From assembly GCF_052324685.1 (NCBI RefSeq), contig NC_135212.1, positions 2,745,652 to 2,809,651 on the forward strand: DNA of 64,000 nt. The letters are read 5' to 3'. Origin of the DNA: Brachyhypopomus gauderio. Lineage: Eukaryota; Chordata; Actinopteri; Gymnotiformes; Hypopomidae. Shown here one piece after another: positions 9,283 through 63,558 of the stretch. The notes under the pieces were generated by a model. The model was not told where the DNA came from. It searched no databases and saw only the letters and a list, made by a program, of their open reading frames with translations. A program made the position numbers and the translations under genes. Every line of letters begins with the position of its first letter. Within the stretch, counting starts at the first letter, position 1.

Positions 9283-9377
9283 AATCAAATCAAATCAAAT
9301 ATATTTGTATAGCGCTTTTCACAACATATGTTGTCACAAAGCGCTTTACAGGATTTACAAGTTTTAACAATCATATG
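9283..9377 (-). repeat. LINE 3' tail, first part (continues at 16297)
   Basis: ATCAAATCAAATCAAAT followed by TTGTATAGCGCTTTTCACAAC is the minus-strand tail of the same L2/jockey-type family as 6.0 kb. It is interrupted at 9377 by the BEL/Pao element. An uninterrupted copy is at 41204. Confidence 0.85.
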
Positions 9378-9823: not shown

Positions 9824-9971
9824 GTGAAAAGACAGCAATACAGCTACGAGGGACGCGAGGATAGCCATAGCGTGGAGCTAATTAGTATCAGAAATACGCG
9901 ACTAACCTTCAGCTTCCAGACAGCTTCACGTTAGCCCGCTCCTCTCGATAACGATTAGCGCAACCATCGGG

Positions 9972-12900: not shown

Positions 12901-13712
12901 GGCCCGACCTCAACAATAGCCTGCTGGGCGTTCTCATGAGGTTCAGGAAGGAACAGGTAGCGGTCACTGCTGACATTGAACACATGTTCCATTGCTTCAT
13001 TGTCCGGGAAGACCACCGAGACTTTCTTCGTTTCCTGTGGTTTAAGGATAACAACCCTAACGCTGACATCGTGGACTACAGGATGCGAGTTCACCTCTTT
13101 GGCAATAGCCCCTCGCCTGCCGTTGCAGTGTACGGGTTGAGGAGGGCAGCTAGGGAAGCGGAAGCCGATTATGGAAGTGACGCAAGAAGGTTTGTTGAAC
13201 GTGAATTCTATGTGGACGACGCCTTAAAATCTTTTGCCAGAGAAGAAGAAGCGATCAGTGTTCTTCGACGGGCTCAGAAGATGCTCGCAGCATCCAACCT
13301 CAGGCTGCATAAGATCGCATCGAACAGACCAGCAGTCATCAAAGCATTTCCGCATGAAGATTGCTCTAAGGAAGTAGACAGTCTCAGTCTCTTTGCAGAT
13401 GACACACCCATCCAACGCAGTCTCGGATTGCTTTGGAACATGCTCGCAGACACCTTTATGTTCCGAATTGAGGACGATCAGAAGCCGTTCACTCGCAGGG
13501 GAGTGCTTTCGACTGTGAATAGTCTTTATGACCCTCTGGGGTTCCTTGCACCTATCACAGTCAACGGGAGGTTGATGCTTAGAGAACTCACCATGCAAGG
13601 AGGAGACTGGGATGCGCCGCTCCCCAGAGACAAAGAGGTAGAGTGGACTGAATGGAAACAGTCGCTTCGGGACTTAGAAGGTCTGCAGACCTACTACGGG
13701 TGCGTTGAGTAG
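9972..13712 (+). CDS. BEL/Pao gag-protease-reverse transcriptase polyprotein
   Basis: 1246 codons. The N-terminal 200 residues are charged and Ala/Gln/Glu-rich, probably coiled coil, and the gag core follows. Residues about 520-556 hold Cys/His knuckles (CFRCCSSTEHLAKNC and CTECGSITHASALH). The protease active site is YAILDEQSNRSLV near residue 625. Reverse transcriptase motifs are VVFDSSAS, VTADIEHMF and the catalytic FYVDD near residue 1080. Translation stops at 13710-13712, before RNase H, and the RNase H frame is offset by one base and overlaps by 8 bp. This family normally has one continuous polyprotein, so I infer a disabling frameshift rather than programmed shifting. Confidence 0.9.
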   Translation: MSQRSDSSKQARDDRSESARSTSSRSSTKSSRTTVSMAVAMAQAKAEAAQARAAHAEREIQLKVEQARIQANLEALNEEKEKDAAIAEANTLAAGLQDMGFEVRSEIKSVPYQAVKDQRTAAFVADQASSRREDAFAAAEYDAVSPSSHSACSGMANAMPSATRVFMGNQAAASEAVTAHQVRQGSHASGAPPQPFLYSAPAPQLCGASPQRRFKKEPSIPFDPLFQRTQYGASHDRSTTTADFIRYLARNQLVTSGLTKYDDQPVNYWAWKGSFQNAISELELHAAEELDLLIKYLGKESAEQVRRIRTVNIGSPPIGLRMAWERLDEMYGSPEAVEQALFSKLESFPKVTAKDPQKLRDLADLLAELQAAKQDGYLAGLLYLDTSRGIRPIIEKLPYNLQEKWLYYGTKYKRENMVSFPPFSALVDFISMVAKARTDPSFSFFVQASTEKKGNWERPTKTSVYTQKTQVSATAKSELRERIDPNKLCPLHRKPHPLKKCRGFREKSIEERKQLLRDHYICFRCCSSTEHLAKNCEAEVECTECGSITHASALHPKPFTQKPKSSTPYTADGGEQDEAESQEVKSSCTQVCGEGLSARTCAKICLVSVFPNGCKEKAKRMYAILDEQSNRSLVRSEFFDTFQISACSFSYTLTTCAGLTEMEGRRARGFTVESVSEGVSIPLPTLLECNQIPNVRTEIPTPDAAYHHPHLKRIAKKIPPLDPEAKILLLLGRDILRVHKVREQISGPGDAPFAQRLDLGWVVVGDVCLRGAHRSMEVRSWKTAILENGRTSYLQPCGNKVSVKEKFHLGHSQQRDSMATFARSLSSSVGGRLGQTVFAQTSDDHRLAPSREDLEFLELMETECYQDSSNSWVAPLPFRTPRRQLPNNRQQALDRLISLQRSLEKRPQMKVDFLKFMEKMLKKAHAEVAPPLRPGQECWYLPLFGVYHPRKPDKIRVVFDSSASSEGVSLNNVLLTGPDLNNSLLGVLMRFRKEQVAVTADIEHMFHCFIVREDHRDFLRFLWFKDNNPNADIVDYRMRVHLFGNSPSPAVAVYGLRRAAREAEADYGSDARRFVEREFYVDDALKSFAREEEAISVLRRAQKMLAASNLRLHKIASNRPAVIKAFPHEDCSKEVDSLSLFADDTPIQRSLGLLWNMLADTFMFRIEDDQKPFTRRGVLSTVNSLYDPLGFLAPITVNGRLMLRELTMQGGDWDAPLPRDKEVEWTEWKQSLRDLEGLQTYYGCVE

Positions 13713-15825
13713 AGAACTTTGTGTTTTTGCAGACGCATCAACAAAAGCAATAGCAGCTGTGGCCTACATCAGGATAACGAGTCACCAAGGACAGAGTGGA
13801 ATCGGATTCGTCTTCAGGAAGGCGAAGTTAGCTCCTCCAGCTGGAGCGACCGTTCCAAGACTCGAGCTCTGTGCCGCTGTGCTTGCGGTCGAGATTGTTG
13901 AGATGATAGTCGCGGAGATGGATATCACGTTCGACAGCATCATCTACTACACAGATAGCAAAGTCGTGCTAGGCTACATTTACAACCAATCTAGGAGATT
14001 CTATGTCTACGTGCACAACAGAGTCCAGCGTATCCGCCAATCTCCTTGTTTTGGTCAGTGGAGGTACGTCCCAACGCACCTCAACCCAGCTGACATCGGG
14101 TCAAGAACGACAACGCCGGCCTTACTGAGCAGCACAGCTTGGCTCAAGGGACCAATCTTTCTTCATAGCGCAGCTTCATGCTTGTCTGATTCTCAGGAGA
14201 CATACGAGATGGTTGAGCCTGACCTTGACTCAGAAGTGCGACCCCAAGTGCTCACAAGCTTCACACACGTCGTTAGAAATGTGATACGCCCACAGCGGTT
14301 TGAACGCTTTTCCGACTTCGGAGCTCTTCTTATGGCCATAGCACGTCTCGTTCATGTGGCACGTTCCTTTGCTCGTTCAGCCCAGGATGGATGCCGAGGG
14401 TGGCACATTTGTCGTCCTTCAGAAGAAGAGCTGCTGAGAGCCAAGGCGTGTATCGTGAAGAGTGTCCAAAGTGAGTACTATGCGGAAGAACTGACCTGCA
14501 TTGGTTCAGGAACCAATATCCAACCTTCCAGCAGTCTGTGGAAGCTGCACCCCACATTGGATCAAGACCAACTTCTCAGGGTAGGAGGCTGGATCGAGCA
14601 AGCGAGACTGGGCATGAGCGAGTGTCATCCTATTATCATACCTGGCCAGCATCATCTTGCAACCCTGCTTGTGTTGCATTATCATGAAGCGGTGAAACAC
14701 CAAGGGAGGCATATGACCGAAGGTGCCATCCGAGCGGCAGGGTTCTGGCTGGTAGGTGCTAAACGCCGCATCAGCAGTATGCTCTACAAATGCGTCACTT
14801 GTAGGAAGTTGAGAGGAAAGACCGAATGCCAGCAGATGGCAACTCTGCCAGCGGAATGCCTACAAGTTGCACCCCCTTTCACCTACGTAGGTGTGGACGT
14901 CTTTGGACCGTGGGACATCGTTGCACGCCGCACGAGAGGAGGAACCGCCAACTCCAAACGCTGGGCCGTGATGTTCTCGTGCATGTGCTCAAGAGCAGTT
15001 CACATTGAACTGATCGAAGCAATGAGTTCCAGCAGCTTCATCAATGCTTTGAGGAGGTTCTTTGCAATCAGGGGGCCTGCAAGGCAGATACGCTCGGACT
15101 GCGGAACCAACTTTGTTGGTGCTTCTCGAGAGTTGAGCATGGACAGACAGAGTCCAGACTTCCACAGCATGGAGAAATTCTTGGAGACTCAAAATTTCAC
15201 CTGGGTTTTCAACCCACCCCACGCGTCCCATATGGGTGGGGCTTAGGAACGAATGATTGGCATCGCCCGTCGCATACTGGACTGCATGCTGCTCGAACAG
15301 AAGAGGTTTCCCTTGACGCACGAGGTCTTGGCTACCCTCATGGCAGAGGTAGCAGCGATCATGAATGCGAGACCTCTCGTCCCAGTGTCATCAGATCCGG
15401 AGTCGCCACTAATTCTCACCCCAGCGATGCTTCTAACCCTCAAGACAGGCACTTCACCCCCTCCACCACTGGCCAGCATGGAGGACGCAGCTCTCTTTCG
15501 GGAGGAGTGGAAGCGAGTTCAAGGTTTAGCAGACTCCTTTTGGTATAGGTGGAGGCGGGAATACCTTAAGACGCTGCAGCTCAGACATAAGTGGCAAAAG
15601 AAACGGCCGAGTCTCCAAGAAGGGGATGTAGTGCTTTTGAAGGATGCTGAAGCGAAGAGAAACCAGTGGCCTATGGGTATTGTCAGGAGAACCTTTCCAG
15701 GAGAGGACAAGCTGGTTCGGAAAATCGACGTGGAAGTGATCAAGGATGGAACTAAGAGAACGTTCTTACGCCCTATTACAGAAGTAGTTCTGCTTCTTTC
15801 CCCACAGACTGAATCTTCTCATTAG
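13705..15825 (+). pseudogene. BEL/Pao RNase H-integrase, interrupted by a stop
   Basis: The frame opens with RNase H motifs (CVFADASTKAI near its start, YYTDSKVVLGY near residue 85). The integrase follows: an H-H-C-C zinc domain (HYHEAVKHQGR...CVTCRKLRG) and two of the three catalytic acidic residues, in YVGVDVFGPW and IRSDCGTNF. An in-frame TAG at 15244-15246 falls immediately before the third catalytic residue. The rest of the integrase reads on in the same frame to 15825. With the upstream frameshift this makes the copy non-autonomous despite its young LTRs. Confidence 0.88.
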
Positions 15826-15854
15826 TGTGGGCCTTAGAGTGCCCAGGCGGGGAG

Positions 15855-16296
15855 TGTTATGCCCCAGCGATAAGTTGTTTGATTTTGTAACTAAGTTGTT
15901 TCGTTACTATGACGATAAAGCAGAGATGTATTCTGGGTAGTAAGAAGTAGCGTTTGTTATGCACCTGTCATGGTCAGTTGTGTGTTCATCCTGCCTGCAG
16001 CCATAGCTCAAACTTTCTCTCCCTCCTTGCTAAGGCATTGTCTGTGAGTACAACCTATATATTGCTTGTATGCAGACGTTATACCCTGTGTTCGCTAGCA
16101 TCTTTATGCATAACTAGTTACGTAGTCATGCTATGCTGCTCATCCATATGCTATGTTGACGTGTATGCTGATTGAAACGTCTCGTTGTAATTGTTACAGT
16201 TTCACAAGATTCTCACTAAACTTCATGGAAAGAATTATCCGTGTCCTGGAGTTTTTTTTGAGAGTGTTTAAACTGATTGGAATCCAGCCCATGACA
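15855..16296 (+). repeat. BEL/Pao 3' LTR
   Basis: 442 bp, TGTTATGCCCC to CCCATGACA, followed by the ATATG target duplication. It differs from the 5' LTR only by two short indels in a base-by-base reading. Confidence 0.93.
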
Positions 16297-18639: not shown

Positions 18640-19001
18640 TGTGACGGGGGTAGTGAGGCGGCAGGAGGCGAAGGCTGCATATCATACTCTTTATTATCCA
18701 TATTCAACAAAAGGAGAAACAGAAGCAGGATAGGCTGCATCAGTACTCTAATACGAGACCCAGTCCTTGTATCTGACGACAGTAAGACGACAGGGAGGGA
18801 ACAAGTCCAGTGACCTGAGGAATAGTCTCCATACAATGTGCAGCACTGGACTGCACGACCTGTGGGCTTAAAAGGTGGCAAACATGACAGGCTACAGGTG
18901 TCAATACTGCAGTGATTGGGTTTGGTGCTCGGGGACGTGTGCCATGTGTGTGTGTGGATGCACACGCCCTCTGGTGGTGGCCCGACCTCCCCACTATGAC
19001 A
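18640..19001. mobile_element. Solo LTR (362 bp)
   Basis: TGTGACGGGG to CCCACTATGACA, followed by CTTAG (19002-19006). The left CTTAG is lost because the 16.6-kb element adjoins it. The duplicate at 41620-41730 retains both CTTAG repeats but lacks about 250 internal bases. Confidence 0.85.
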
Positions 19002-19391
19002 CTTAGTGTCCATCAGGAGCACAGTCTGTTAGGGGATATTCACCCTTGACCACCCAGACAGCCTTGCTGGCCTGTTACAACTCTTGCATAACTTCTAGAT
19101 TCAGAATCATCCAAGTTTTTTGGATGTTCACTTGCATATGCCCTCCATCTACCCTGAAGGCAGTTCCTTAATATATAAAAAATTATAAATGTCTGTTTTT
19201 GATATGTTCACCCATATTACACAGTGTTTAGCTGACCAGTGATAAAATGTCTAATGAATTTTTAAAACATATTAACACTTGAGTGAGTAACACAAAGCAA
19301 CGCAGCATTTTTAAAAGCATTTAAATAAAGTAATAGTGCTGTAAAGGCATTTTCAGAGCAGCTTTAACTAAATGATTATTTGTGAAGATCA
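19002..19391. other. Intergenic
   Basis: No gene is seen. Nearly identical to 41731-42119. Confidence 0.6.
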
Positions 19392-19429
19392 GGTTTTTGC
19401 TGAGCATTGCAATCTCTTGCTTCACTGTG
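19392..19429 (-). promoter_or_regulatory. V(D)J recombination signal of VH 19.4 kb
   Basis: Minus strand: heptamer CACAGTG (19423-19429), 22-bp spacer, nonamer GCAAAAACC (19392-19400). Confidence 0.93.
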
Positions 19430-19868
19430 CGTCACGAGCACAGTAATACACAGCAGTGTCTTCTGTCTTCAGTTTGCTCATGTGCAGATACACCTGGTTC
19501 TTGCTGTTGTCTCTTGAGGTGGTGAACCGGCCATAAACTGCACTAGAGTAAAACTTGTTATCACTGTCATACTCAATAGTTGAAACAAATTCCAGTCCTT
19601 TTCCAGGTGCCTGTCTGATCCAAGCCATCCAGTAGATACCAAAGTTAAACCCAGAGGCTGTACAGGTCAGTGTATGAGCATTGTCAGGTTTGATAACCAC
19701 TGGCTCAGACTCTGTCAGAGTTTGACTCAGAGAATCTGAAATATAAGAGCAAGCATAAAAATTAGATGTCAAGTAGATGTGAACATTTTATAAAGAGACA
19801 ATTGAGTCAAACTTACAGTGAAAGAAAACTGACACAGCAATGCATTCCAGTAATCTGAATAGACCCAT
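19430..19868 (-). CDS. Immunoglobulin heavy-chain V segment, group III (19.4 kb)
   Basis: The leader exon 19817-19868 encodes [17 protein letters not shown] plus one base, with donor GTAAGT. The V exon 19430-19735 follows ATTTCAG and the split codon joins in frame. FR1 is [14 protein letters not shown], the first Cys is in TLTCTASG, the Trp in [14 protein letters not shown], and FR3 runs [11 protein letters not shown] to [10 protein letters not shown]. No stops. An octamer-like ATGCAAAA is 100 bp before the ATG. The copy at 42.2 kb differs by only two residues in the V region (I/S in CDR1, Y/N in CDR2). Confidence 0.94.
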
Positions 19869-19967
19869 TTCTGAAGAACTGAAATCACAGCTCCTGTCAT
19901 GAATAAATTTTTACTTACCAGTAAACTACTGAAGTGAATGTAGCTATAAATTGGTGAAGCATTTTTT

Positions 19968-19975
19968 TTTTGCAT
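19968..19975 (-). promoter_or_regulatory. Octamer-like promoter site
   Basis: Minus strand ATGCAAAA (one mismatch to the octamer), 100 bp upstream of the leader ATG. A TATA-like AATTTATAG at about 19943-19952 lies between. Confidence 0.6.
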
Positions 19976-20040
19976 AGCCCACCCATAGAAGCTATAAATA
20001 TCCCCTCTGGGGAATATGTAAGAACACATAAGAATCAAAC

Positions 20041-21246
20041 ACTACTGAAGAAACCTTAAGAACAGAACTTTACTAAACAGGCTTTAAGAACAGAACTTTA
20101 CTGGACAGGCTTTAAGAGCAGAACACTACTGAACTGTTTTTAAGAACAGAACAAATTTAGGAACAACACATTACTGGAAGGCTCCACCAGTGTTTCACAC
20201 CAAAGAGTCCAAAAGTCTTTTCTTTTGTTTTTTTCAGATGCAAAAAATCTACTCATCATTAGTCATTTGTCAAGAAATGAGTATCTACTGGGTATGTTCT
20301 TAATATCAGCACTAGACCTTAAGACCTTAAGGTAGGTAGATGCTGGATTCAGGGAGATGCTGGATTCAGACGAGATCTGACAAAAACTCTGCCGGTTATG
20401 AAAACCTTGTAAATATAAATCAGTAGTTGGAATCAAACTATTTGTTATCATTTATATGAGTATTTGTCATGAGCTGATGAGTAGATCATAATAGCAACAT
20501 TTAAAAGTGCTCATTTTTGAGGATGATCTGAATAATGTGACAGAAAGTCACAGCAGCCTGAGTAACTGTGAGTAGCTGATAGTGTGTTCATGTGAAGATG
20601 ATTAAATATTGTCTGTCTGATCCAGGCTATTTAAGAGAAATCATAGAATCCCTCAGACAAGACCTGATCTAGTTTTACATTTCTGCATTTATCCCATCCA
20701 GAGTGCACACACACATAGCCAGTACAGTGGTCACACACCTGTAGTGGTGCCCAGGGAGCAGTTGGGCGTCTTTCTCCATGACATTGCAGCTATGGTTACT
20801 TCTGGTAGTGGAGTTTGAACCACTGAACTTTCAATCACATGCCAGGGTTTCTAAAGTTAATTGTAATTGTGAAGTTAATTATGACAAGATGTGATATGAT
20901 ATCTGATGTTTACAGCATTGGTTAACAGTTATAGTATATTTATACAGTATATTTATTTACTTTGAATGACAAATTGTTTCCCATGGAGACCCCATCTATT
21001 GAGGAAAATGTGTAGTTTTGTTTGCATAGACTGCCCCCTACAGGTAAAAAAGACTGTTCCATATGCAGAGTAAGAACGTTCATGTTAAACTCACATACTG
21101 TACTATTGTAACACGCTCAGTTTTGCAGACAAAAGTTTGTAAAGAAATTCCATCATAGTTTTAGTCTCTATGTTTATGAGGAATGTGCATGGGACAAGAA
21201 GTCTTACTGCACAGAGGGAGTGCCTACTGGATTTAGTACTTTGCTG

Positions 21247-21315
<69 letters not shown>

Positions 21316-22300
21316 TGAATGCATAATAAGCTTTCCCTAGCTGACCAAAGGGATATTCAGTCAAGGATAAAATCACTGAGGAACTAGGGTAATCATTGTA
21401 TTACCCTAATCCTCAAAGTAAAAAAATATGTCTGAATATAGTGTTGGAGCCATTATGTAGAGAATATAGTTTCTTATAATTTATTTATTTGTAATGTTTG
21501 AGTGTTTGAATATAAGACTGATTGTTGTCTGTTAAATATTGTCTTGCCTACAGTAATAACGTTAATTTTACGCACAACGTCATTTTTAGGCATGAAGCTG
21601 CAGTAGCCGTTAGAGTGACAGCACAACAGTCTTTGACCGTTACCACACGGAGCTAAGCTATATAGCGCAAGACAATTTGTACTTTGTCATATGAGAAATG
21701 TTTCATTTAGTAAATTTTGAAAATCTTCAATGAAGTCTCGCGTCATTGACTCCAATGCAAGAAGTTAAAAGAAGAAGAAGCTGCACCTACATATAGCAAT
21801 AGATAGCCTACTTACAACAACACTGAAATATACCAATGTAAATCAAATTCATGATGAGATTATTGAATTTATAATAAATTATATGCTAGTACTGTACATA
21901 ATGGATAAAATGCCATTGTTTTATTCACTGGTAATGTCCAATTTGACATTGATGAGGGGTTGTCTGATGTATACAACTATCTCTACCGTCTTCTGCATTT
22001 CCAACTACCTTCCACTAAGCTCATGAATCACTGTTAAATGTGAGGTCAACCACAGTGGTGATTGGTGAAAACTGAAGATTTTCAGAGTGTTCCTTGAAGT
22101 TTCTCACCTTCCTACTGTCCTCTTTTTAAAAACCCAAATTATGCAAATGTGCACATGAAGCCACTCCACAAAAGAGTCTAAATATTTTTTTCTGTACCTT
22201 TTCAGTGCTCTCTCTCTACTTGATTCTAAATTTTATTTCTCATTTCAAGTTCTTTGATTTGTCTGATGAATTGGTGAAGTGGGAATATGTCAATATGGTC
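20041..22300. other. Intergenic, duplicated at 42770-44993
   Basis: No gene is supported. Contains short repeats of a TTAAGAACAGAACTTTACT phrase (20050-20150) and the CA microsatellite listed separately. The same sequence with small indels is present in block B. Confidence 0.6.
21248..21313. repeat. (CA)n microsatellite
   Basis: About 33 CA units. The paired tract in block B (43990-44032) is about 12 units shorter. Confidence 0.97.
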
Positions 22301-22338
22301 TGTTTTTGTCTTAATCTGCAGTGTTCTGTTTCATTGTG
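22301..22338 (-). promoter_or_regulatory. V(D)J recombination signal behind the 12-unit array VH
   Basis: Minus strand: heptamer CACAATG (22332-22338), 22-bp spacer, nonamer ACAAAAACA (22301-22309). The essential CAC of the heptamer is intact, and the G-to-A change at position 5 would be expected to weaken it. Confidence 0.85.
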
Positions 22339-23109
22339 GTGTTCGAGCACAGTGATACACAGCAGTGTCTTCTGTTTTCAGACTGGTCATGTGTAGATAC
22401 ACCTGCATCTTGCTGTTATCTCTGGAGATGGTGAACCTCCCTTGTAGTAATTGAGAGTATGATTTATCTCTGGAGATGGTGAACCTCCCTTGTACTGATT
22501 TTGAATATGATTTATCACTGGAGATGGTGAACCTCCCTTGTACTGATTGAGAGTATGATTTATCTCTGGAGATGGTGAACCTCCCTTGTGGTGATTGAGA
22601 GTATGATTTATCACTGGAGATGGTGAACCTCCTTTGTACTGATTGAGAGTATGATTTATCACTGGAGATGGTGAACCTCCCTTGTACTGATTGAGAGTAT
22701 GATTTATCTCTGGAGATGGTGAACCTCCCTTGTACTGATTGAGAGTATGATTTATCTCTGGAGATGGTGAACCTCCCTTGTGGTGATTGAGAGTATGATT
22801 TATCACTGGAGATGGTGAACCTCCCTTGTACTGATTGAGAGTATGATTTATCTCTGGAGATGGTGAAGCTCCCTTGTACTGATTGAGAGTATGATTTATC
22901 TCTGGAGATGGTGAACCTTCCTTGTAGTGATTGAGAGTATGATTTATCTCTGGAGATGGTGAACCTCCCTTGTGTCAGTGTCTGGATCCTGCAACCCGCA
23001 ACATCAAGGTTCATTATATGTATGTTTGAATACTGGCAAATAAATATTACAGAGGATGTAAATGAAATGCATAAATACATCTACTCACCAAAGTGATCAT
23101 TGGATTCAT
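22339..23109 (-). pseudogene. VH-derived segment with 12 tandem CDR2/FR3 units
   Basis: The minus strand is open over 249 codons. After a TTGCAG acceptor-like site comes IQTLT, the first residues of a group III FR1. The frame then jumps straight to QGRFTISRD. The 16-residue unit ([19 protein letters not shown]) runs 11 times, and the twelfth copy continues into a normal FR3 end ([22 protein letters not shown]). FR1 Cys, CDR1, the FR2 Trp and CDR2 are absent, so no Ig fold is expected. A possible short leader (MNPMITL, donor GTGAGT at 23083-23088) exists but its phase does not fit the acceptor. Classed as a pseudogene, although the frame is kept and an RSS follows. Confidence 0.85.
22422..22973 (-). 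repeat. 48-bp tandem array, 12 units
   Basis: Plus-strand CTGGAGATGGTGAACCTCCC recurs at 22422 and every 48 bp to 22950. Units differ by a few substitutions (CTCTGG/CACTGG, TACTGATT/GGTGATT) in a fixed order. The period is a multiple of three, so the reading frame is preserved. Confidence 0.98.
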
Positions 23110-23142
23110 AGCTGTTTCTGAAAAGTTGAAGCAAAATGAGTT

Positions 23143-23151
23143 TATTCATTT

Positions 23152-23185
<34 letters not shown>

Positions 23186-23204
23186 ACACACACACACACA
23201 CACG
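23143..23204. repeat. (CA)n microsatellite beside a TATA-like box
   Basis: Interrupted CA repeat at about 23161-23204. The adjoining minus-strand TATAAATG near 23146-23153 is about 40 bp upstream of the putative short leader ATG (23109). Confidence 0.7.
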
Positions 23205-23489
23205 GTTATATTGAGTTTGATATTGTGCTTGATGTGGTTACAAAAGGTAAAAATAACCGATCCCTCAAATTCAGAGCATGTGCAGAGGTGACAGACGTAC
23301 CTTAAAAAACAAAGCAAAGTTTGTCTTAAGGTCGGCATAAAGAATGCAGTGACACCACAACATTTAAGATACTGTCACAAAAATCTAAGGACATTTTTCC
23401 TGTAAGGTGTTGGCTCTTTTGTAGTGATCTTATGATACATTTATTCAACTTGTTTCTTCACAAAAGTGTGTGTGTGGTGGGGGGTGGGG

Positions 23490-23528
23490 TGTTTTTGTCA
23501 AGGTATTATGCATTTATCTAGTACTGTG
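23490..23528 (-). promoter_or_regulatory. V(D)J recombination signal of VH 23.5 kb
   Basis: Minus strand: heptamer CACAGTA (23522-23528), 23-bp spacer, nonamer ACAAAAACA (23490-23498). Confidence 0.9.
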
Positions 23529-24020
23529 TGGTCTCCTTACACAATAATACACAGCTGTGTCTTCAGGCTGCAGATTCTGTCCCTGTAGAGTCACTGTGCT
23601 GCTGGAGGCATCTTTAGAAATACTGAACTTGCTTTTCAGAGAATCTTTTTGCCTAATGTCCCCACCCCCCCAAATGTGATTGATCCACTCCAGAGTTTTC
23701 CCTGCAGGCTGCCGTATCCAGCCTGTCGCATAGTTATCATCAGTAACTGAATAACCTGATACTTTACAGTTGATAGTCAGAGATCCTCCTGGATTTATAA
23801 CCAATGAACTTGGCTGAGTTAGGTCAAGATCACATTTCACACCTAGAAAAAAATACAATACAATTTTAATTGCTTGTTTAAACAAATGTAAATAAGTTGA
23901 CCTTTACAGCAAAAATATGTAAATGTAAATAATTAAATTAATAAAATTCTATTTCAAGGACATTACATGAGACTTACAGATTACTGCTCTCATTATCAGT
24001 ATCAGAGATAAGTAGATCAT
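23529..24020 (-). CDS. Immunoglobulin heavy-chain V segment, group IV (23.5 kb)
   Basis: The leader exon 23978-24020 encodes MIYLSLILIMRAVI plus one base, with donor GTAAGT. The V exon 23529-23842 follows TTTTTCTAG, joining to CVKCDLDLTQPSS. First Cys in TINCKVSG, Trp in ATGWIRQPAGKTLEW, FR3 SKFSISKDASSSTVTLQ, end [10 protein letters not shown]. The CDR1 is longer than in groups I-III and CDR2 is Gly-rich (HIWGGGD). No stops. An octamer-like site lies 92 bp before the ATG. Its duplicate is at 46.3 kb. Confidence 0.93.
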
Positions 24021-24111
24021 GGTTGTATGTGGGCTCTGTTGAAGATGCTGCCGTGATCTCCACTGGGGTGAAAGGATGAAGGTCTTTCATACATACAGAA
24101 AGACTGGGTCA

Positions 24112-24119
24112 TTTTGCAT
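24112..24119 (-). promoter_or_regulatory. Octamer-like promoter site
   Basis: Minus strand ATGCAAAA, 92 bp upstream of the group IV leader ATG. The same site and spacing occur at 46845-46852. Confidence 0.65.
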
Positions 24120-24301
24120 AAGCTGAAACGTCAATTATTCCAATTATTTATTCAAATCATTCAAATTATTAAGCGGGTGATGCATTTATAAAGCAGATTG
24201 GTATAATTTCATGACTATTAGAAATGTCTCTCAGCCAAAGGTAAAGGTTTTTTGAAATTCAAATAAATCAATTTGAATTATTGACCTCAGAATTATCGAA
24301 C

Positions 24302-24820
24302 TGTCACGTAGGGCCACGCCCCCCTCTCTAGCTGTCACTTCGGTTCCCTGCTCGAGGTCTGTGTTGTTCCCTGCTTGTCTGGTGATTGTGTTCTTGCATT
24401 GATTCCAGTGTGATCCTTATTCTGTGTTCCCAGTTCTGTGAGTACTTCTGTGTTCTGTGAGTACGTTTTTGCTGCCCAGTCACTCTGTGTTTCTGTTTCT
24501 GTTTCCTGGTTGTTTTGTTTGCGTTCTACCCGTGTTTTTTTTCAAGTATATCGTTCGGTCATGTCTCTTCATGTTTCTTGTTCTGAGAAAAAAATGTTTC
24601 CTGTTTCCATTGCTGGACATATTATTCCCTGCCTATAAGGGCCTTTACCTTCCTTAGTAAAGTTAAGGATCCTTCACTTCTCTTCCAGTTTTCACCTTTG
24701 TCTAGTTTGTTAAGACGTCACTTTGACATTTTTATTACCTTGTTACCTAAACTACAGCCAGTGAATAATAACAACTTTTAAATGAGTGCAAGAGGCACTA
24801 GTGAGCACAGAGGATTGTGA
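24302..24820. mobile_element. LTR-like repeat (TGTCACGTAGGG...)
   Basis: Begins TGTCACGTAGGGCCACGCC, resembling the start of the solo LTR at 36077, and may end near TTGTGACA. No target duplication was found, so the end is uncertain. The block B copy (47036-47425) lacks about 100 bp. Confidence 0.45.
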
Positions 24821-25053
24821 CAGTAGCAAAACCCACAGCAGCACACACAGCAGGGGCAAATGTGCCATGGGTAAATGTGTATGTGATGCCGGCCACAGGC
24901 CTAGGGGAACCTTGGCCAGGCACAAGGTGACGTCAACCCCTGGGATGACGTTATGATGGCAGAGGGAAAGAGTGGCTCGCTCACTCTCTTCCTCGTTCTG
25001 TCTTTCTCTCTCTCTCTCTCTTTCTCTGTAGTAACGAAGGGAAATAGCACAAC

Positions 25054-34819: not shown

Positions 34820-36800
34820 CCATAAGAGGTCAAGCACTCTCCTGGTTCAGGTCCTACCTGACAGATCGTTACCAATTTGTACTAGTAAATAACGAATGCT
34901 CAGAGCATTCTAAGGTAAAGTATGGTGTCCCACAAGGATCTGTACTGGGCCCCATATTATTCTCATTATATATGCTACCACTGGGCACTATCATTCGTAG
35001 GCATGGTATTAGCTTCCATTGCTACGCAGATGATACTCAGTTGTATATTTATTCTAATCCAGATGATATCACCACAACTCTCAAGATTGAGAACTGTGTC
35101 CAGGACATTAAAAACTGGATGGCGTCTAATTTTCTTCAACTAAATTCTGACAACACTGAGGTGCTGATTCTTGGGCCTAAAGCTGCTAGAAGCAATTGGG
35201 CTGATATTCCCCTTACCCTAGATGGTTTTTCAGTAACACCTAAATCTACTGCAAAAAGTTTAGGTGTCACTATTGATTCTGATCTTTCATTTGATGGACA
35301 TGTATGCAATATCACTAAGGCTGTCTTTTTCCATTTACGTAATATCGCCAAGCTGAGACACTTACTTTCATTAGCTGATGCAGAGAAGCTGGTCCATGCT
35401 TTTGTCTCGTCAAGATTGGACTACTGTAATAGTCTTCTAATTGGATGCTCTAAACAGTCCATAAAGAAGCTACAACTTGTACAAAATGCTGCAGCTAGAG
35501 TCCTAACTAAGGCTAGAAAATTTGATCATATTAGTCCCACTCTCGCCGCATTGCACTGGCTACCGATTAAATATCGCATTGAATTTAAAGTTCTTCTGTT
35601 AACCTATAAGGCGTTAAATGGTCTTGCCCCACAATATCTGAGTGAACTCATTGCTTACTACAACCCATCTTGCCCTTTGCGCTCCCAAAATGCTGGATTT
35701 CTCCTAGTTCCAAAAATGAGTAAAACTACAGCCGGAGGGAGAGCTTTCTCCTTTAAAGCCCCTCAATTATGGAATAGCCTTCCAGCTCAAATCCGAGATT
35801 CTGACACAGTTCCAATCTTTAACTCTAGACTTAAGACTCACCTATTTAATCAAGCCTTCAGCTAATATTCCCCTTGTAAGGTGTAGGGGCTCGGGGGCCC
35901 CCAGACATTGAGATTTCTGGTGATCTGAGATGTTGATGCTGTCATCCAGCTGTGTCATGGCATCACTCTATTTGTGACAATGACTTGACTGGAAAGCAAT
36001 GTCTCAGTGAGCCCTCATGTCTGTGGTCACCATAGATTAGCCTGCCAGAGCCACATGCTCGTCACTGGCACGTGAGTGTAACGTAGGGCTACGCCCCCCT
36101 CTCCTCGCTGTCACTCCAATGTCTCTGTTCCTCATGTCTTTGTTGTTCTTTGCCCGTTAGCCCCTCCCTGCTTGTCTGTCTGCCTGGTTTCTGTCTGTCT
36201 GCCACGCCCGTGTCGTTATCGTCCTCAGCTATGTCTTGTTAGTTCCGTGTACTTATAGTCCCTGTGTTTCCCTAGCCCCTTGTCGGTTATTCGTTCTCTC
36301 TTGGTTTATCGTGGTATGTTCTAGTTTGGTTACTCTTCGCCCGTTGTTCTCGTGTTTTGTGTCTCCCAGCCTTGTCAGTGTTTCCCTGTTGCCATTATGC
36401 CCGTGTATGCGTGTTATTCTGACTGCCCTCCCGTGATGAACCCGGACTGGTTTTCTGAATCCGATGATGGTATGCCCTTTAATAAATCTCGCTCTTCTCA
36501 GCATTTGTGTCCGTCCCCTCGCTTCGCAGTGCAAGCTACGTTACAGTGAGCTATGTACATTTAAATCAACGGTGGTTTAATTTCATGTCCACTCAGTCTG
36601 TATTGTCTATCTTCTTGCATGCCTCTACCCAAGACGATTGGATACAGGCACCTGCAGGCACCTGGGGGATGGTCTAGCTGCCGGTGGATGTGCTGTTGCC
36701 GGGGTTGGATGAGCCATTGCCACTAGGTGTCATGCTGATGCTGGCCCGCCTGAGGCCCACCGCCTGCACCGAGGGGACTGTGGCTGCTTGGCCGGTGTTG
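34820..36800 (+). mobile_element. L2/jockey-type LINE, second copy, with solo LTR inside
   Basis: Plus-strand frame to 35865 with IRGQALSWFRSYLTDRY, YGVPQGSVLGP, CYADDTQLY and a C-terminus RLKTHLFNQAFS. It lacks the endonuclease and the first RT motifs. The 3' UTR matches the 6.0-6.8 kb copy in reverse and is split at 36077 by an LTR insertion. The apparent N-terminal extension from 34558 is flanking repeat read through. Confidence 0.88.
36077..36545. mobile_element. Solo LTR (469 bp) with GTGAG target duplication
   Basis: Ends TGTAACGTAG and CTACGTTACA form a perfect 10-bp inverted repeat. GTGAG flanks both sides (36072-36076 and 36546-36550). The other LINE copy reads CACGTGAGCTACGTAC without interruption (complement near 6577-6591), giving the empty site. 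A TTTAATAAATC polyadenylation-like word suggests plus orientation. Confidence 0.94.
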
Positions 36801-41619: not shown

Positions 41620-41730
41620 TGTGACGGGGGTAGTGAGGCGGTGATTGGGTTTGGTGCTTGGGGACGTGTGCTGTGTGTGTGTGTGGATGCACACGCCCTC
41701 TTGTGGCGGCCCGGCCTCCCCACTATGACA
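41620..41730. mobile_element. Solo LTR, internally deleted (111 bp)
   Basis: TGTGACGGGG to CACTATGACA with CTTAG on both sides (41615-41619 and 41731-41735). The block A copy (18640-19001) is 362 bp, so about 250 bp have been lost from the middle here. Confidence 0.88.
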
Positions 41731-42119
41731 CTTAGTGTCCATCAGGAGCACAGTCTGTTAGGGGATATTCACCCTTGACCACCCAGACAGCCTTGCTGGC
41801 CTGTTACAACTCTTGCATAACTTCTAGATTCAGAATCATCCAAGTTTTTTGGATGTTCACTTGCATATGCCCTCCATCTACCCTGAAGGCAGTTCTTTAA
41901 TATATAAAAATTATAAATGTCTGTTTTTGATATGTTCACCCATGTTACACAGTGTTTAGCTGACCAGTGATAAAAGGTCTAATGAATTTTTAAAACATAT
42001 TAACACTTAAGTGAGTAACACAAAGCAACGCAGCATTTTTAAAAGCATTTAAATAAAGTAATAGTGCTGTAAAGGCATTTTCAGAGCAGCTTTAACTAAA
42101 TGATTATTTGTGAAGATCA

Positions 42120-42157
42120 GGTTTTTGCTGAGCATTGCAATCTCTTGCTTCACTGTG
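42120..42157 (-). promoter_or_regulatory. V(D)J recombination signal of VH 42.2 kb
   Basis: Heptamer CACAGTG (42151-42157), 22-bp spacer, nonamer GCAAAAACC (42120-42128), minus strand. Confidence 0.93.
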
Positions 42158-42596
42158 CGTCACGAGCACAGTAATACACAGCAGTGTCTTCTGTCTTCAG
42201 TTTGCTCATGTGCAGATACACCTGGTTCTTGCTGTTGTCTCTTGAGGTGGTGAACCGGCCATTAACTGCACTAGAGTAAAACTTGTTATCACTGTCATAC
42301 TCAATAGTTGAAACAAATTCCAGTCCTTTTCCAGGTGCCTGTCTGATCCAAGCCATCCAGTAGCTACCAAAGTTAAACCCAGAGGCTGTACAGGTCAGTG
42401 TATGAGCATTGTCAGGTTTGATAACCACTGGCTCAGACTCTGTCAGAGTTTGACTCAGAGAATCTGAAATATAAGAGCAAGCATAGAAATTAGATGTCAA
42501 GTAGATGTGAACATTTTATAAAGAGACAATTGAGTCAAACTTACTGTGAAAGAAAACCGACACAGCAATGCATTCCAGTAATCTGAATAGACCCAT
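42158..42596 (-). CDS. Immunoglobulin heavy-chain V segment, group III (42.2 kb)
   Basis: The leader exon 42545-42596 encodes [17 protein letters not shown] plus one base, with donor GTAAGT. The base before the donor is A here against T at 19.4 kb, so the split codon changes. The V exon is 42158-42463. The V-region protein equals the 19.4-kb segment except S for I in CDR1 and N for Y at the CDR2 end. All conserved Ig residues are present. An octamer-like site lies at 42695-42702. Confidence 0.94.
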
Positions 42597-42694
42597 TTCT
42601 GAAGAACTGAAATCACAGCTCCTGTCATGAATAAATTTTTACTTACCAGTAAACTACTGAAGTGAATGTAGCTATAAATTGGTGAAGCATTTTT

Positions 42695-42702
42695 TTTTGC
42701 AT
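42695..42702 (-). promoter_or_regulatory. Octamer-like promoter site
   Basis: Minus strand ATGCAAAA, 99 bp before the leader ATG, paralogous to 19968-19975. Confidence 0.6.
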
Positions 42703-42769
42703 AGCCCACCCATAGAATCTATAAATATCCCCTCTGGGGAATATGTAAGAACACATAAGAATCAAACAC

Positions 42770-43988
42770 TACTGAATAAACCTTAAGAACAGAACTTTAC
42801 TAAACAGGCTTTAAGAACAGAACTTTACTGGACAGGCTTTAAGAGCAGAACACTACTGAACAGTTTTTTAAGAACAGAACAGATTTAGGAACAACACATT
42901 ACTGGAAGGCTCCACCAGTGTTTCACACCAAAGAGTCCAAAAGTCTTTTCTTTTGTTTTTTTCAGATGCAAAAAATCTACTCCTCATTAGTCATTTGTCA
43001 AGAAATGAGTATCTACTGGGTATGTTCTTAATGTCAGCACTAGACCTTAAGACATCATTCAGGCCACACATGTAATTTACAGACATAAGGCAGATGCTGG
43101 ATTCAGACGAGATCGGACAAAAACTCTGCCGGTTATGAAAACCTTGTAAATATAAATCAGTAGTTGGAATCAAACTATTTGTTATCATTTATATGAGTAT
43201 TTGTCATGAGCTGATGAGTAGATCATGTATAATAGCAACATTTAAAAGTGCTAATCTTTGAGGATCATCTGAATAATGTGACAGAAAGTCACAGCAGCCT
43301 GAGTAACTGTGAGTAGCTGATAGTGTGTTCATGTGAATATGGTTAAATATTGTCTGTCTGATCCAGGCTATTTAAGAGAAATCATAGAATCCCTCAGACA
43401 AGACCTGATCTAGTTTTACATTTCTGCATTTATCCCATCCAGAGTGCACACACACATAGCCAGTACAGTGGTCACACACCTGCAGTGGTGCCCAGGGAGC
43501 AGTTGGGCGTCTTTCTCCATGACATTGCAGCTATGGTTACTTCTGGTAGTGGAGTTTGAACCACTGAACTTTCAATCACATGCCAGGGTTTCTAAAGTTA
43601 ATTGTAATTGTGAAGTTAATTATGACAAGATGTGATATGATCTCTGATGTTTACAGCATTAGTTAACAGTTATAGTATATTTATACAGTATATTTATTTA
43701 CTTTGAATGACAAATTGTTTCCCATGGAGACCCCATCTATTGAGGAAAACGTGTAGTTTTGTTTGCATAGACTGCCCCCTACAGGTAAAAAAGAATGTTC
43801 CATATGCAGAGTAAGAACGTTCATGTTAAACTCACATACTGTACTATTGTAACACGCTCAGTTTTGCAGACAAAAGTTTGTAAAGAAATTCAGAGGTTAG
43901 TTTTAGTCTCTATGTTTACGAGGAATTTGCATGGGACAAGAAGTCTTACTGCACAGAGGGAGTGCCTACTAGATTTAGTACTTTGCTG

Positions 43989-44035
<47 letters not shown>

Positions 44036-44993
44036 TGAATGCATAATAAACTTTCCCTAGCTGACCAAAGGGATTCAGTCAAGGATAAAATCACCCTAAT
44101 CCTCAATGTAAAAAAATATGTCTGAATATAGTGTTGAAGCCATTATGTAGAGAATATAGTTTCTTTACTTATAATTTATTTATTTGTAATGTTTGAGTGT
44201 TTGAATATAAGACTGATTGTTGTCTGTTAAATATTGTCTTGCCTACAGTAATAATGTTAGTTTTACGCACGACGTCATTTTTAGGCATGAAGCTGCAGTA
44301 GCCGTTAGAGTGACAGCACAACAGTCTTTGACCGTGACTACACGGAGCTAAGCTATATAGCGCAAGAGAATTTGTACTTTGTCATATGAGAAATGTTTCA
44401 TTTAGTAAATTTAGAAAATCTTCAATGAAGTCTCGCGTCATTGACTCCAATGCAAGAAGTTAAAAGAAGAAGAAGCTGCACCTACATATAGCAATAGATA
44501 GCCTACTTACAACAACACTGAAATATACCAATGTAAATCAAATTCATGATGAGATTATTGAATTTATAATAAATTATATGCTAGTACTGTACATAATGGA
44601 TAAAATGCCATTGTTTTATTCACTGGTAATGTCCAATTTGACATTGATGAGGGGTTGTCTGATGTATACAACTATCTCTACCGTCTTCTGCATTTCCAAC
44701 TACCTTCCACTAAGCTCATGAATCACTGTTAAATGTGAGGTCAACCACAGTGGTGATTGGTGAAAACTGAAGATTTTCAGAGTGTTCCTTGAAGTTTCTC
44801 ACCTTCCTACTGTCCTCTTTTTAAAAACCCAAATTATGCAAATGTGCACATGAAGCCACTCCACAAAAGAGTGTAAATATTTTTTTCTGTACCTTTTCAG
44901 TGCTCTCTCTACTTGATTCTAAATTTTATTTCTCATTTCAAGTTCTTTGATTTGTCTGATGAATTGGTGAAGTGGGAATATGTCAATATGGTC
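42770..44993. other. Intergenic, duplicate of 20041-22300
   Basis: No gene is seen. Includes a (CA)n tract at 43990-44032. Confidence 0.6.
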
Positions 44994-45030
44994 TGTTTTT
45001 GCCAACTCTGCAGCGTTCTGTTTCATTGTG
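44994..45030 (-). promoter_or_regulatory. V(D)J recombination signal behind the 13-unit array VH
   Basis: Heptamer CACAATG (45024-45030), 21-bp spacer, nonamer GCAAAAACA (44994-45002), minus strand. The spacer is one base shorter than in block A. Confidence 0.82.
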
Positions 45031-45848
45031 GTGTTCGAGCACAGTGATACACAGCAGTGTCTTCTGTTTTCAGACTGGTCATGTGTAGATACACCTGCAT
45101 ACACCTGCAGCTGTTATCTCTGGAGATGGTGAACCTCCCTTGTAGTAATTGAGAGTATGATTTATCTCTGGAGATGGTGAAGCTCCCTTGTACTGATTTT
45201 GAATATGATTTATCACTGGAGATGGTGAACCTCCCTTGTACTGATTGAGAGTATGATTTATCTCTGGAGATGGTGAACCTCCCTTGTGGTGATTGAGAGT
45301 ATGATTTATCACTGGAGATGGTGAACCTCCTTTGTACTGATTGAGAGTATGATTTATCACTGGAGATAGTGAACCTCCCTTGTACTGATTGAGAGTATGA
45401 TTTATCTCTGGAGATGGTGAACCTCCCTTGTACTGATTGAGAGTATGATTTATCTCTGGAGATGGTGAACCTCCCTTGTGGTGATTGAGAGTATGATTTA
45501 TCACTGGAGATGGTGAACCTCCCTTGTACTGATTGAGAGTATGATTTATCTCTGGAGATGGTGAAGCTCCCTTGTACTGATTGAGAGTATGATTTATCTC
45601 TGGAGATGGTGAACCTCCCTTGTACTGATTGAGAGTATGATTTATCTCTGGAGATGGTGAACCTTCCTTGTAGTGATTGAGAGTATGATTTATCTCTGGA
45701 GATGGTGAACCTCCCTTGTGTCAGTGTCTGGATCCTGCAACCCGCAACATCAAGGTTCATTATATGTATGTTTGAATACTGGCACATAAATATTACAGAG
45801 GATGTAAATGAAATGCATAAATACATCTACTCACCAAAGTGATCATTG
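45031..45848 (-). pseudogene. VH-derived segment with 13 tandem CDR2/FR3 units
   Basis: Block B copy of 22339-23109. The frame is open for 267 codons. The unit variants appear in the same order as in block A, with one extra [16 protein letters not shown] unit near the FR1 side. A 6-bp insertion (two codons, RDNSCRCMQ) lies just after the last unit. The end is [10 protein letters not shown] and the RSS. It likewise lacks FR1 Cys, CDR1 and FR2 Trp. Confidence 0.85.
45120..45719 (-). repeat. 48-bp tandem array, 13 units
   Basis: CTGGAGAT starts recur every 48 bp from 45120 to 45696. One unit carries GATAGTGAACC instead of GATGGTGAACC, which the block A array lacks. Confidence 0.98.
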
Positions 45849-45897
45849 GATTCATAGCTGTTTCTGAAAAGTTGAAGCAAAATGAGTTTATTCATTT

Positions 45898-45934
<37 letters not shown>

Positions 45935-46221
45935 TGGTTATATTGAGTTTGATATTGTGCTTGATGTGGTTACAAAAGGTAAAAATAACCGATCCCTCAA
46001 ATTCAGAGCATGTGCAGAGGTGACAGACGTACCTTAAAAAACAAAGCAAGGTTTGTCTTAAGGTCGGCATAAAGAATGCAGTGACACCACAACATTTAAG
46101 ATACTATCACAAAAATCTAAGGACATTTTTCTTGTAAGGTGTTGGCTCTTTTGTAGTGATCTTATGATACATTTATTCAACTTGTTTCTTCACAAAAGTG
46201 TGTGTGTGGTGGGGGGTGGGG

Positions 46222-46260
46222 TGTTTTTGTCAAGGTATTATGCATTTATCTAGTACTGTG
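46222..46260 (-). promoter_or_regulatory. V(D)J recombination signal of VH 46.3 kb
   Basis: Heptamer CACAGTA (46254-46260), 23-bp spacer, nonamer ACAAAAACA (46222-46230), minus strand. Confidence 0.9.
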
Positions 46261-46752
46261 TGGTCTCCTTACACAATAATACACAGCTGTGTCTTCAGGC
46301 TGCAGATTCTGTCCCTGTAGAGTCACTGTGCTGCTGGAGGCATCTTTAGAAATACTGAACTTGCTTTTCAGAGAATCTTTTTTATAAGTTTCCCCACCCC
46401 CCCAAATGTGATTGATCCACTCCAGAGTTTTCCCTGCAGGCTGCCGTATCCAGCCTGTCGCATATGTATTATCAGTAACTGAATAACCTGATACTTTACA
46501 GTTGATAGTCAGAGATTCTCCTGGATTTATAACCAATGAACTTGGCTGAGTTAGGTCAAGATCACATTTCACACCTAGAAAAAAATACAATACAATTTTA
46601 ATTGCTTGTTTAAACAAATATAAATAAGTTGACCTTTACAGCAAAAATATGTAAATGTAAATAATTAAATTAATAAAATTCTATTTCAAGGACATTACAT
46701 GAGACTTACAGATTACTGCTCTCATTATCAGTATCAGAGATAAGTAGATCAT
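46261..46752 (-). CDS. Immunoglobulin heavy-chain V segment, group IV (46.3 kb)
   Basis: The leader exon 46710-46752 is identical in protein to that at 24.0 kb (MIYLSLILIMRAVI), and the V exon is 46261-46574. The V domain is intact. Relative to the 23.5-kb copy the changes are G to E in FR1, DDNYA to DNTYA in CDR1, and GDIRQ to GETYK in CDR2. The octamer-like ATGCAAAA at 46845-46852 lies 93 bp before the ATG. Confidence 0.93.
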
Positions 46753-46844
46753 GGTTGTATGTGAGCTCTGTTGAAGATGCTGCCGTGATCTCCACTGGAG
46801 TGAAAGGATGAAGGTCCTTTCATACACACAGGAAGACTGAGTCA

Positions 46845-46852
46845 TTTTGCAT
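46845..46852 (-). promoter_or_regulatory. Octamer-like promoter site
   Basis: Minus strand ATGCAAAA ahead of the group IV leader, same spacing as at 24112-24119. Confidence 0.65.
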
Positions 46853-47035
46853 AAGCTGAAACGTCAATTATTCCAATTATTTATTCAAATCATTCAAATT
46901 ATTAAGCGGGTGATGCATTTATAAAGCAGATTGGTATAATTTCATGACTATTAGAAATGTCTCTCTGCCAAAGGTAAAGGTTTTTTGAAATTCAAATAAA
47001 TCAATTTGAATTATTGACCTCAGAATTATCGAACT

Positions 47036-47425
47036 GTCACGTAGGGTGCCCCCCTCTCTAGCTGTCACTTCGGTTCCCTGCTCCTCGTGTCTGTGTTGTT
47101 CCCTGCTTGTCTGCGTTCTACCCGTGTTTTTTTTTCAAGTATATCGTTCGGTCATGTCTCTCCATGTTTCTTGTTCTGAGAAAAAAATGTTTCCTGTTTC
47201 CATTGCTGGACATATTATTCCCTGCCTATAAGGGCCTTTACCTTCCTTAGTAAAGTTAAGGATCCTTCACTTCTCTTCCAGTTTTCACCTTTGTCTAGTT
47301 TGTTAAGACATCACTTTGACATTTTTATTACCTTGTTTAGTTCTAGGGCCTAAACTACAGCCAGTGAATAATAACTTTTAAATGAGTGCAAGAGGCACTA
47401 GTGAGCACAGATGAATGTGACAGTA
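47036..47425. mobile_element. LTR-like repeat, shortened copy of 24302-24820
   Basis: Same start (TGTCACGTAGGG) and end region as the block A copy, with deletions after TAGGG and after CTTGTCTG. Confidence 0.45.
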
Positions 47426-48179
47426 GCAAAACCCACAGCAGCACACACAGCAGGGGCAAATGTGTCATGGGTAAATGTGCATGTGTTGCCAGCCACAGGT
47501 CTAGGGGAACCTTGGCCAGGCACAAGGTGACATCAACCCCTGGGATAACGTTATGATGGCAGATGGAGAGAGCCGCTCACTCACTCTCTTCCTCGTTCTG
47601 TCTTTTTCTTTCTCTCTCTCTCTGTCTCTCTCTCTGTGGTAATGAAGGGAAACATCACAACGCTGGAGTTTAGTCTGTGGCATAAGGTTTATTCTGACCT
47701 TTTTGTATTTTGCCAGAGGCATTCGTTTCCCTAACGATCAGCGCCGAGCGCCCTCTACAGGCTCTGAAGATAATACCAGTCGCTCCTGACTGCTGATAAC
47801 CTCTCACAAATATTATAAAAAAACCAAATTAAAGTGACAGATAATTAAAAAAAATATATGTATGGATGGTCTGTTTCCAGTGGAGTTCTATATTCACGTC
47901 CTCTACACATGTTACGCCCCCGGTCTAGGGTGCGAGGTGTAACAGCAATGATAAAGAACAACAGAGAAATAGGCTGAAGTTGTCACACTACAGCCCCGAA
48001 CCCCTCCCCTTGGGGGTGTGTTTACGTAGTCCGCATCCGTATATGTACGGATATGTATATATGTGTATATGTATGTGGGGGTGTGGTTGTGTGTGTGTTC
48101 ACCCGTGTCATTAGTCTAACGTGTTTCATGTGGTGCTTGTTAGTTGAAATGTATAGTGTGTGTGTGTGTGTGTGTATAG
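47426..48179. other. Intergenic
   Basis: CT-rich microsatellite near 47600-47637 and TATGT/TGTG-rich sequence near 48040-48175. No gene is seen. Confidence 0.5.
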
Positions 48180-49189: not shown

Positions 49190-49192
49190 TAA

Positions 49193-63110: not shown

Positions 63111-63558
63111 GGAATCGAGCACAGTAATACACAGCAGTGTCTTCTGTCTTCAGTTTGCTCATGTGCAGATACACCTGCTTCTTGCTGTTGTCTCTGGAGA
63201 TGGTGAACCTCCCTTGGACTGCTTGAGAGGAGTGCTTTTCCCTACTGTTATGATTTATTGCTGCCACCCATTCCAGGCCTTTACCAGGAGTCTGTCTGTT
63301 CCATCCCATCCAGTAGTTAAAGTCTAGACGAGATGCTGTACAGGTCAGCGTATGGGATTCCGTAGGTTTAATGATCACTGGTTCAGATTGTTCCAGTGTT
63401 TGACCACAACAATCTAGATTGCAGAGAAGATTTGACAAGAGACACATTAATACCAGTGACAAAGAATGATAAATGAATTGTTCTGTAAAATCTCATACTA
63501 TTTGGAACTTACGTGCAGTGAGTGATGCTAATATGAAACTCAGACAGATTATTTTCAT
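63111..63558 (-). CDS. Immunoglobulin heavy-chain V segment, group III (63.1 kb)
   Basis: The leader exon 63513-63558 encodes MKIICLSFILASLTA plus one base, with donor GTAAGT. The V exon 63111-63413 follows ATCTAG and joins as HCCGQTLEQSEPVIIKP. First Cys in TLTCTAS, Trp in MGWNRQTPGKGLEW (Asn replaces the usual Ile/Val after Trp), FR3 [14 protein letters not shown], end [10 protein letters not shown]. No stops. The octamer-like ATGCAAAG at 63647-63654 is 89 bp before the ATG. It is the most divergent intact member of group III here and has no duplicate in the window. Confidence 0.92.

What the first reader, a model, noticed from the sequence alone, without database searches (positions are those of the whole stretch)
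22339..23109. A VH segment whose body is replaced by 12 in-frame copies of a CDR2/FR3 unit
Seen: after four FR1 residues (QTLT) the frame goes straight into a 16-residue unit repeated on an exact 48-bp period, then a normal FR3 end, DTAVYHCAR and an RSS. FR1 Cys, CDR1, FR2 Trp and CDR2 are missing. Known: Ig V domains need the Cys pair and Trp for folding. Inference: a pseudogene that became a coding minisatellite. However, all units keep frame and no stop occurs in 249 codons, so a rearranged, translated repeat protein or a role as conversion donor for CDR2/FR3 cannot be excluded. I know of no described VH segment like this.
Basis: partly seen in the sequence, partly recalled or inferred. Interest (0 to 1): 0.85.

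Follow-up and report, generated by a model that had tools for sequence, protein, structure and literature searches.

The report
Dead antibody segment turned minisatellite
In a fish antibody-gene cluster, a broken heavy-chain V segment has lost most of its body and carries instead about twelve in-frame head-to-tail copies of one 48-base piece; it sits there in two duplicated copies, and it looks like a relic rather than a working protein.

Summary
A VH-like exon (22339-22988) runs from QTLT straight into 11 full 48-bp units ([16 protein letters not shown]) plus a partial twelfth, then a normal FR3 end and RSS; Cys23 and Trp41 are gone. (1) A second copy lies at 45031-45734, with 12 full units plus a partial one, in a duplicated block (pieces 92-98% identical). 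Unit order is the same apart from one extra unit, so the array predates the duplication. (2) The 249-codon frame starts inside the putative leader intron. The best leader donor and the usual acceptor give a stop after four codons in both copies; 9 of 9 ordinary V segments tested the same way stay open. No octamer-like element (up to 1 mismatch) lies in 1.3 kb upstream; the 11 ordinary V segments found have one. (3) The open frame is no sign of selection: 48 is a multiple of three, 11 distinct unit changes split 4 silent to 7 not, and chance gives no stop with probability about 0.5. Best explanation: an exonic minisatellite in a dead VH segment of a teleost, probably an electric-eel relative. 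Expression, population variation and copies elsewhere could not be tested.

The parts
22339..22988 (-). Copy A: V exon (L-PART2 remnant, QTLT, array, FR3 end)
22416..22973 (-). Copy A: 48-bp array, 11 full units plus partial twelfth
22301..22338 (-). Copy A: RSS, heptamer CACAATG, spacer 22, nonamer ACAAAAACA
23089..23149 (-). Copy A: candidate leader exon MNKLILLQLFRNSYESNDHF+1 nt, donor GTGAGT; splicing to 22988 gives a stop after 4 codons
45031..45734 (-). Copy B: V exon
45114..45719 (-). Copy B: 48-bp array, 12 full units plus partial thirteenth
44994..45030 (-). Copy B: RSS, heptamer CACAATG, spacer 21, nonamer GCAAAAACA
45835..45895 (-). Copy B: candidate leader exon, same frame clash
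18909..25053 (.). Duplicated block, copy A (pieces of 92-98% identity to 41638-47661)
41638..47661 (.). Duplicated block, copy B
63188..63229 (-). CDR2/FR3 of an ordinary V segment: closest match to the unit in the window outside the arrays (92.9% over 42 bp)

Best explanation
It is a VH pseudogene of the QTLT-type teleost VH family. An in-frame 48-bp piece spanning the end of CDR2 and the start of FR3 was duplicated and then expanded by unequal exchange or slippage. A deletion joined FR1 (QTLT) directly to the array and removed Cys23, CDR1, Trp41 and most of CDR2. The leader side lost its frame match. The block was later copied with its array inside; since then the arrays have come to differ by one unit. 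It makes no antibody; the open frame survives because 48 is a multiple of three and few mutations have fallen in it. Shown: anatomy, second copy, unit order, frame clash at the best splice sites, no selection signal. Inferred: the order of events, the slippage mechanism, absence of translation.
For: Array and frame. Second copy with units in the same order but for one extra unit and two substitutions. The FR1-CDR2 body present in the 11 ordinary V segments found by motif is missing. Best donor plus usual acceptor gives MNKLILLQLFRNSYESNDHFGSRH* in both copies. Control: for 9 of the 11 ordinary V segments I picked a phase-1 leader by eye, and 9 of 9 splice in frame into the V exon; 40346 gave no such leader and 63121 was not tried. 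Octamer with up to 1 mismatch: 0 of 2 array copies in 1.3 kb, 10 of 10 ordinary segments in 0.9 kb and 63121 in 0.88 kb. Eleven distinct unit changes, 4 silent; P(at least 4 silent) 0.28-0.39, P(no stop) 0.45-0.52. No array among the 120 listed hits of the protein search.
Against: The frame is open in both copies. Splice combinations that keep the array open exist: 13 in copy A, 16 in copy B, within the limits set. One uses the same strong donor with a second AG 7 nt downstream, but with the leader MNPMITL only; another uses the same leader with a weaker donor (GTAGAT, 4 of 9 consensus positions against 7 of 9) 4 nt downstream. The RSS of copy A is close to consensus. Raw substitutions between the arrays are fewer than in the flanks (2 of 558 against 44 of 2408, p 0.007), though not when clustered changes count as one event (2 against 25, p 0.21). 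An octamer with one mismatch is expected by chance in about a third of 900-bp stretches (own estimate), and only 3 of the 11 ordinary segments have an exact one, so its absence is modest evidence.
Confidence: 0.88

Rival explanations
1. The segment is rearranged and translated: the array replaces the V domain body and gives a repeat protein, possibly beta-rich, on an Ig heavy chain.
For: Open frame in both copies; near-consensus RSS in copy A; alternative splice combinations keep the frame; single-sequence AlphaFold2 gives regular beta strands.
Against: Frame clash at the best splice sites where 9 of 9 ordinary segments tested have none; no octamer; no silent excess. The model's mean pLDDT is 66.6 for the best of five and 50-54 for the others, and exact repeats often yield regular folds without support (recalled).
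Confidence: 0.04
2. The arrays serve as donors for gene conversion of CDR2/FR3 in other V segments.
For: Units share 92.9% over 42 bp with an ordinary V segment (63121) and 81.8% over 44 bp with another (40346).
Against: That similarity is what common descent gives. The units carry little CDR2 variety: 3 of 11 full units in copy A and 4 of 12 in copy B are identical to each other. No conversion tract was tested.
Confidence: 0.04
3. The array is an assembly artefact (collapsed or inflated repeat, or a false duplication).
For: Long near-identical arrays can be mis-sized; the two copies differ by one unit. Reads could not be checked.
Against: Both copies hold the same unit-specific variants in the same order, and their near flanks differ by 1.8% plus indels. 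The exact unit count may be off, the existence of the array hardly.
Confidence: 0.04

Closest known systems
Teleost VH pseudogenes (e.g. channel catfish IgH locus, over half of 55 VH appear non-functional: PMC5192425, passages seen)
   Same: A defunct VH in a teleost cluster, with RSS kept and body damaged.
   Different: Usual damage, as recalled, is stops, frameshifts or truncation; here the body is replaced by a 48-bp array.
Coding minisatellites such as the 48-bp repeat of DRD4 exon 3 (recalled; search gave no paper)
   Same: A 48-bp in-frame unit of 16 residues in an exon, varying by whole units.
   Different: DRD4 is a working gene; here the host exon lacks the parts needed to make an Ig domain.
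In-frame duplications of CDR/FR sequence during somatic hypermutation (recalled; seen as a listing only)
   Same: Short in-frame duplications in V regions.
   Different: Here it lies in unrearranged sequence, in many copies, shared by two duplicated segments.

Membership tests
Functional IGHV segment | Cys23, Trp41 and Cys104 | tested here: not met
   Of these only Cys104 is kept (DTAVYHC)
Functional IGHV segment | Leader splices in frame to the V exon | tested here: not met
   Best donor and usual acceptor give a stop after 4 codons in both copies; other combinations keep the frame. Control: 9 of 9 ordinary segments tested are open
Functional IGHV segment | Octamer promoter element | tested here: not met
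   None with up to 1 mismatch in the 1.3 kb before Cys104, 0 of 2 copies
Functional IGHV segment | RSS with 23 +/- 1 spacer, copy A | tested here: met
   Heptamer CACAATG, spacer 22, nonamer 8 of 9
Functional IGHV segment | RSS with 23 +/- 1 spacer, copy B | tested here: not met
   Heptamer CACAATG, spacer 21, nonamer 7 of 9
Functional IGHV segment | Rearranged and expressed | not testable with these tools
   No repertoire or RNA data held
Immunoglobulin V-set domain (PF07686) | Pfam gathering score | tested here: not met
   22.3 and 16.2 bits for copies A and B, cut-off 26; best stretch at the FR3 end; two ordinary V segments 46.4 and 50.9
Exonic minisatellite | Head-to-tail units of constant period | tested here: met
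   Period 48, 94% matches, no indels
Exonic minisatellite | Variation in unit number | tested here: met
   11 against 12 full units in the duplicated copies; variation among individuals not testable

The most novel reading that the evidence does not exclude
The array is rearranged to D-J and, through a non-canonical splice, translated as a repeat module on an Ig heavy chain: an antigen-receptor chain whose V domain is replaced by a 16-residue repeat.
Probability: 0.03. Interest if true: 0.9.

Novelty: new variant of a known kind. Interest (0 to 1): 0.33.

Why it matters
It shows that a VH exon can decay by turning into a minisatellite that stays open because its period is a multiple of three, so an open frame in a V-like exon is not by itself evidence of function. 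The duplicated copies give a natural measure of array turnover: one unit of difference while the near flanks diverged by 1.8%. If it were expressed, it would be a wholly new form of Ig chain.

Tried and rejected
Selection on the array from fewer substitutions between the copies: p 0.007 on raw counts, but differences are clustered (a 460-bp stretch free of substitutions lies outside the array), and as independent events p is 0.21.

A 48-bp direct repeat in ordinary V segments as the seed of the array: in 63121 the codons EK of CDR2 lie exactly 48 bp before DN of FR3, but the best 12-base match at shift 48 there is 7 of 12 and lies elsewhere; shuffles of 63121 reach 7 or more in 1086 of 2000. 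Among the 11 ordinary segments the best at shift 48 is 8 of 12; the best overall is 10 of 12 at shift 51, in 2295 and 59542, for which no shuffles were run. The seed remains unknown. An aspartate 16 residues before the FR3 Asp occurs in 9 of 260 V stretches parsed from the fetched proteins.

Related arrays elsewhere: the protein search scored 7869 candidates, 4206 passed E 0.01 and 120 were listed. I checked all 237 proteins fetched by the two searches, those 120 included: the closest pair of FR3-start motifs is 39 residues apart, so none has a 16-residue array (one search had printed only 40 rows). The 8 sequences that I printed hold two or more V or FR3 pieces. The unlisted hits were not seen.

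Pfam matches of the array to other families: GH43_C passes its curated cut-off in both copies (27.4 and 27.8 against 23.4) and DUF4166 in copy A (23.8 against 23), yet no single stretch of theirs passes on its own; muHD stays below its cut-off (24.3 and 23.7 against 25), with one and two stretches that pass the E-value on their own. I take these as sums over repeats, not as membership; this is judgement. I ran no fold search, because the model is of low confidence.

Literature: searches returned nothing; 18, 36, 37 (12 of 47 listed), 45 and 50 returned lists in which no title or start of abstract describes such a VH. The library holds open-licence papers only. I read passages of one paper (PMC5192425); the others I saw as listings.

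Full report
What is there. On the minus strand, a VH-like exon at 22339-22988 reads IQTLT and then passes into 48-bp units encoding [16 protein letters not shown]. There are 11 full units and a partial one that continues into [26 protein letters not shown], followed by heptamer CACAATG, spacer 22 and nonamer ACAAAAACA. TRF gives period 48, 94% matches and no indels. The unit joins the end of CDR2 (SYSQSVQ) to the start of FR3 (GRFTISRD). FR1 after QTLT, with Cys23, and CDR1, Trp41 and the first part of CDR2 are absent (position numbers recalled, IMGT style). One search found 13 V segments by their Cys104 motif, all on the minus strand: 2 are the array segments, and the other 11 have both cysteines and the tryptophan.

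A second copy. TRF found the same unit at 45114-45719. The block 18909-25053 matches 41638-47661 in pieces of 92-98% identity. Copy B has 12 full units and a partial one; its units stand in the order of copy A except for one additional plain unit and two substitutions. So the array was there before the block was duplicated; whether B gained a unit or A lost one is open. Between the copies the array regions show 2 substitutions in 558 aligned bases; the flanks aligned (21400-24381) show 44 in 2408. That contrast is p 0.007 on raw counts but p 0.21 once clustered differences count as single events, so I do not read it as selection. Copy B also has a 10-bp tandem repeat (TGCAGGTGTA) in FR3 that adds two codons net, and an RSS spacer of 21.

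Can it be translated? The 249-codon ORF (22331-23080) starts inside what should be the leader intron (22989-23088). The best leader candidate ends at a GTGAGT donor in phase 1. Joined to the usual acceptor TTGCAG|GATCC it gives MNKLILLQLFRNSYESNDHFGSRH* in both copies. As a control I took phase-1 leaders, picked by eye, for 9 of the 11 ordinary V segments; in 9 of 9 at least one acceptor before the V exon gives an open frame to Cys104. 40346 gave no such leader, and 63121 was not tried. Thirteen combinations in copy A and 16 in copy B do keep the array open (starts up to about 270 bp before the exon, leaders of 15-90 nt, introns of about 60 nt or more). Most use weaker donors or starts in the dinucleotide repeat. 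The two most serious are the strong donor with a second AG 7 nt downstream, which has a seven-residue leader, and the same leader with a weaker donor 4 nt downstream. No octamer with up to one mismatch lies within 1.3 kb upstream of Cys104 in either copy; the 11 ordinary segments each have one within 0.9 kb (10, 63121). Three of those 11 are exact; one-mismatch matches can be chance.

Is the open frame a sign of function? Among the 23 full units of both copies there are 11 distinct changes from the consensus, 4 silent and 7 not. Under neutrality at least 4 silent has probability 0.28-0.39 and no stop has probability 0.45-0.52, depending on the transition bias. A unit of 48 bp keeps frame by arithmetic. 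So the open frame tells nothing either way.

Relatives. An ordinary V segment of the window (42162-42452) is 94% identical to an Ig-like protein of Electrophorus electricus; the next identities over the whole query in the 120 listed are 80-85%, in characins, catfishes and one loach, and a second Electrophorus protein has 68%. The window is therefore probably from an electric eel or a close relative; this is inference. A search with the array frame listed 120 of 4206 hits; none is an array. No published account was found in searches, judged by titles and starts of abstracts.

Structure. A single-sequence AlphaFold2 model shows regular beta strands with mean pLDDT 66.6, the other four models 50-54. 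I give it no weight.

Verdict. A VH pseudogene that turned into an exonic minisatellite and was then duplicated with its block. Not shown: absence of expression, array size by long reads, copies elsewhere in the genome (nine genome searches did not complete), and what seeded the first duplication (one search found no more than chance similarity at 48 bp).

Noticed in passing
9377-16296: LTR-flanked element (terminal repeats 9377-9823 and 15854-16296, 99.1% identical) with reading frames at 9972-13712, 13705-15246 and 15253-15825; two of the three pieces scanned match the Pao retrotransposon peptidase, so probably a young BEL/Pao retrotransposon.
   Followed up: partly
6658-7868 and 34821-36031: Inverted pair, 95.8% identical, with reverse-transcriptase matches (RVT_1) in overlapping reading frames of both.
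   Followed up: partly
3250-3900 (-): A further VH relict with stops and frame changes (pieces VQTLTE, SGLEWISHIYDSS, KGRFTNSRDKS), missed by the motif scan; it shares the QTLT start and RDKS in FR3 with the array segment.
   Followed up: no
45031-45143: Copy B FR3 carries a 10-bp tandem repeat TGCAGGTGTA where copy A has AAGA, net two codons in frame.
   Followed up: partly
40340-40636: Ordinary-looking QTLT V segment without a phase-1 leader candidate and with no RSS found by the scan; may itself be defective.
   Followed up: no
51980-53593 (+): 537-codon open frame without a Pfam match at E 0.001.
   Followed up: no
49185-49915: Tandem arrays with long periods of 162 and 175 bp.
   Followed up: no
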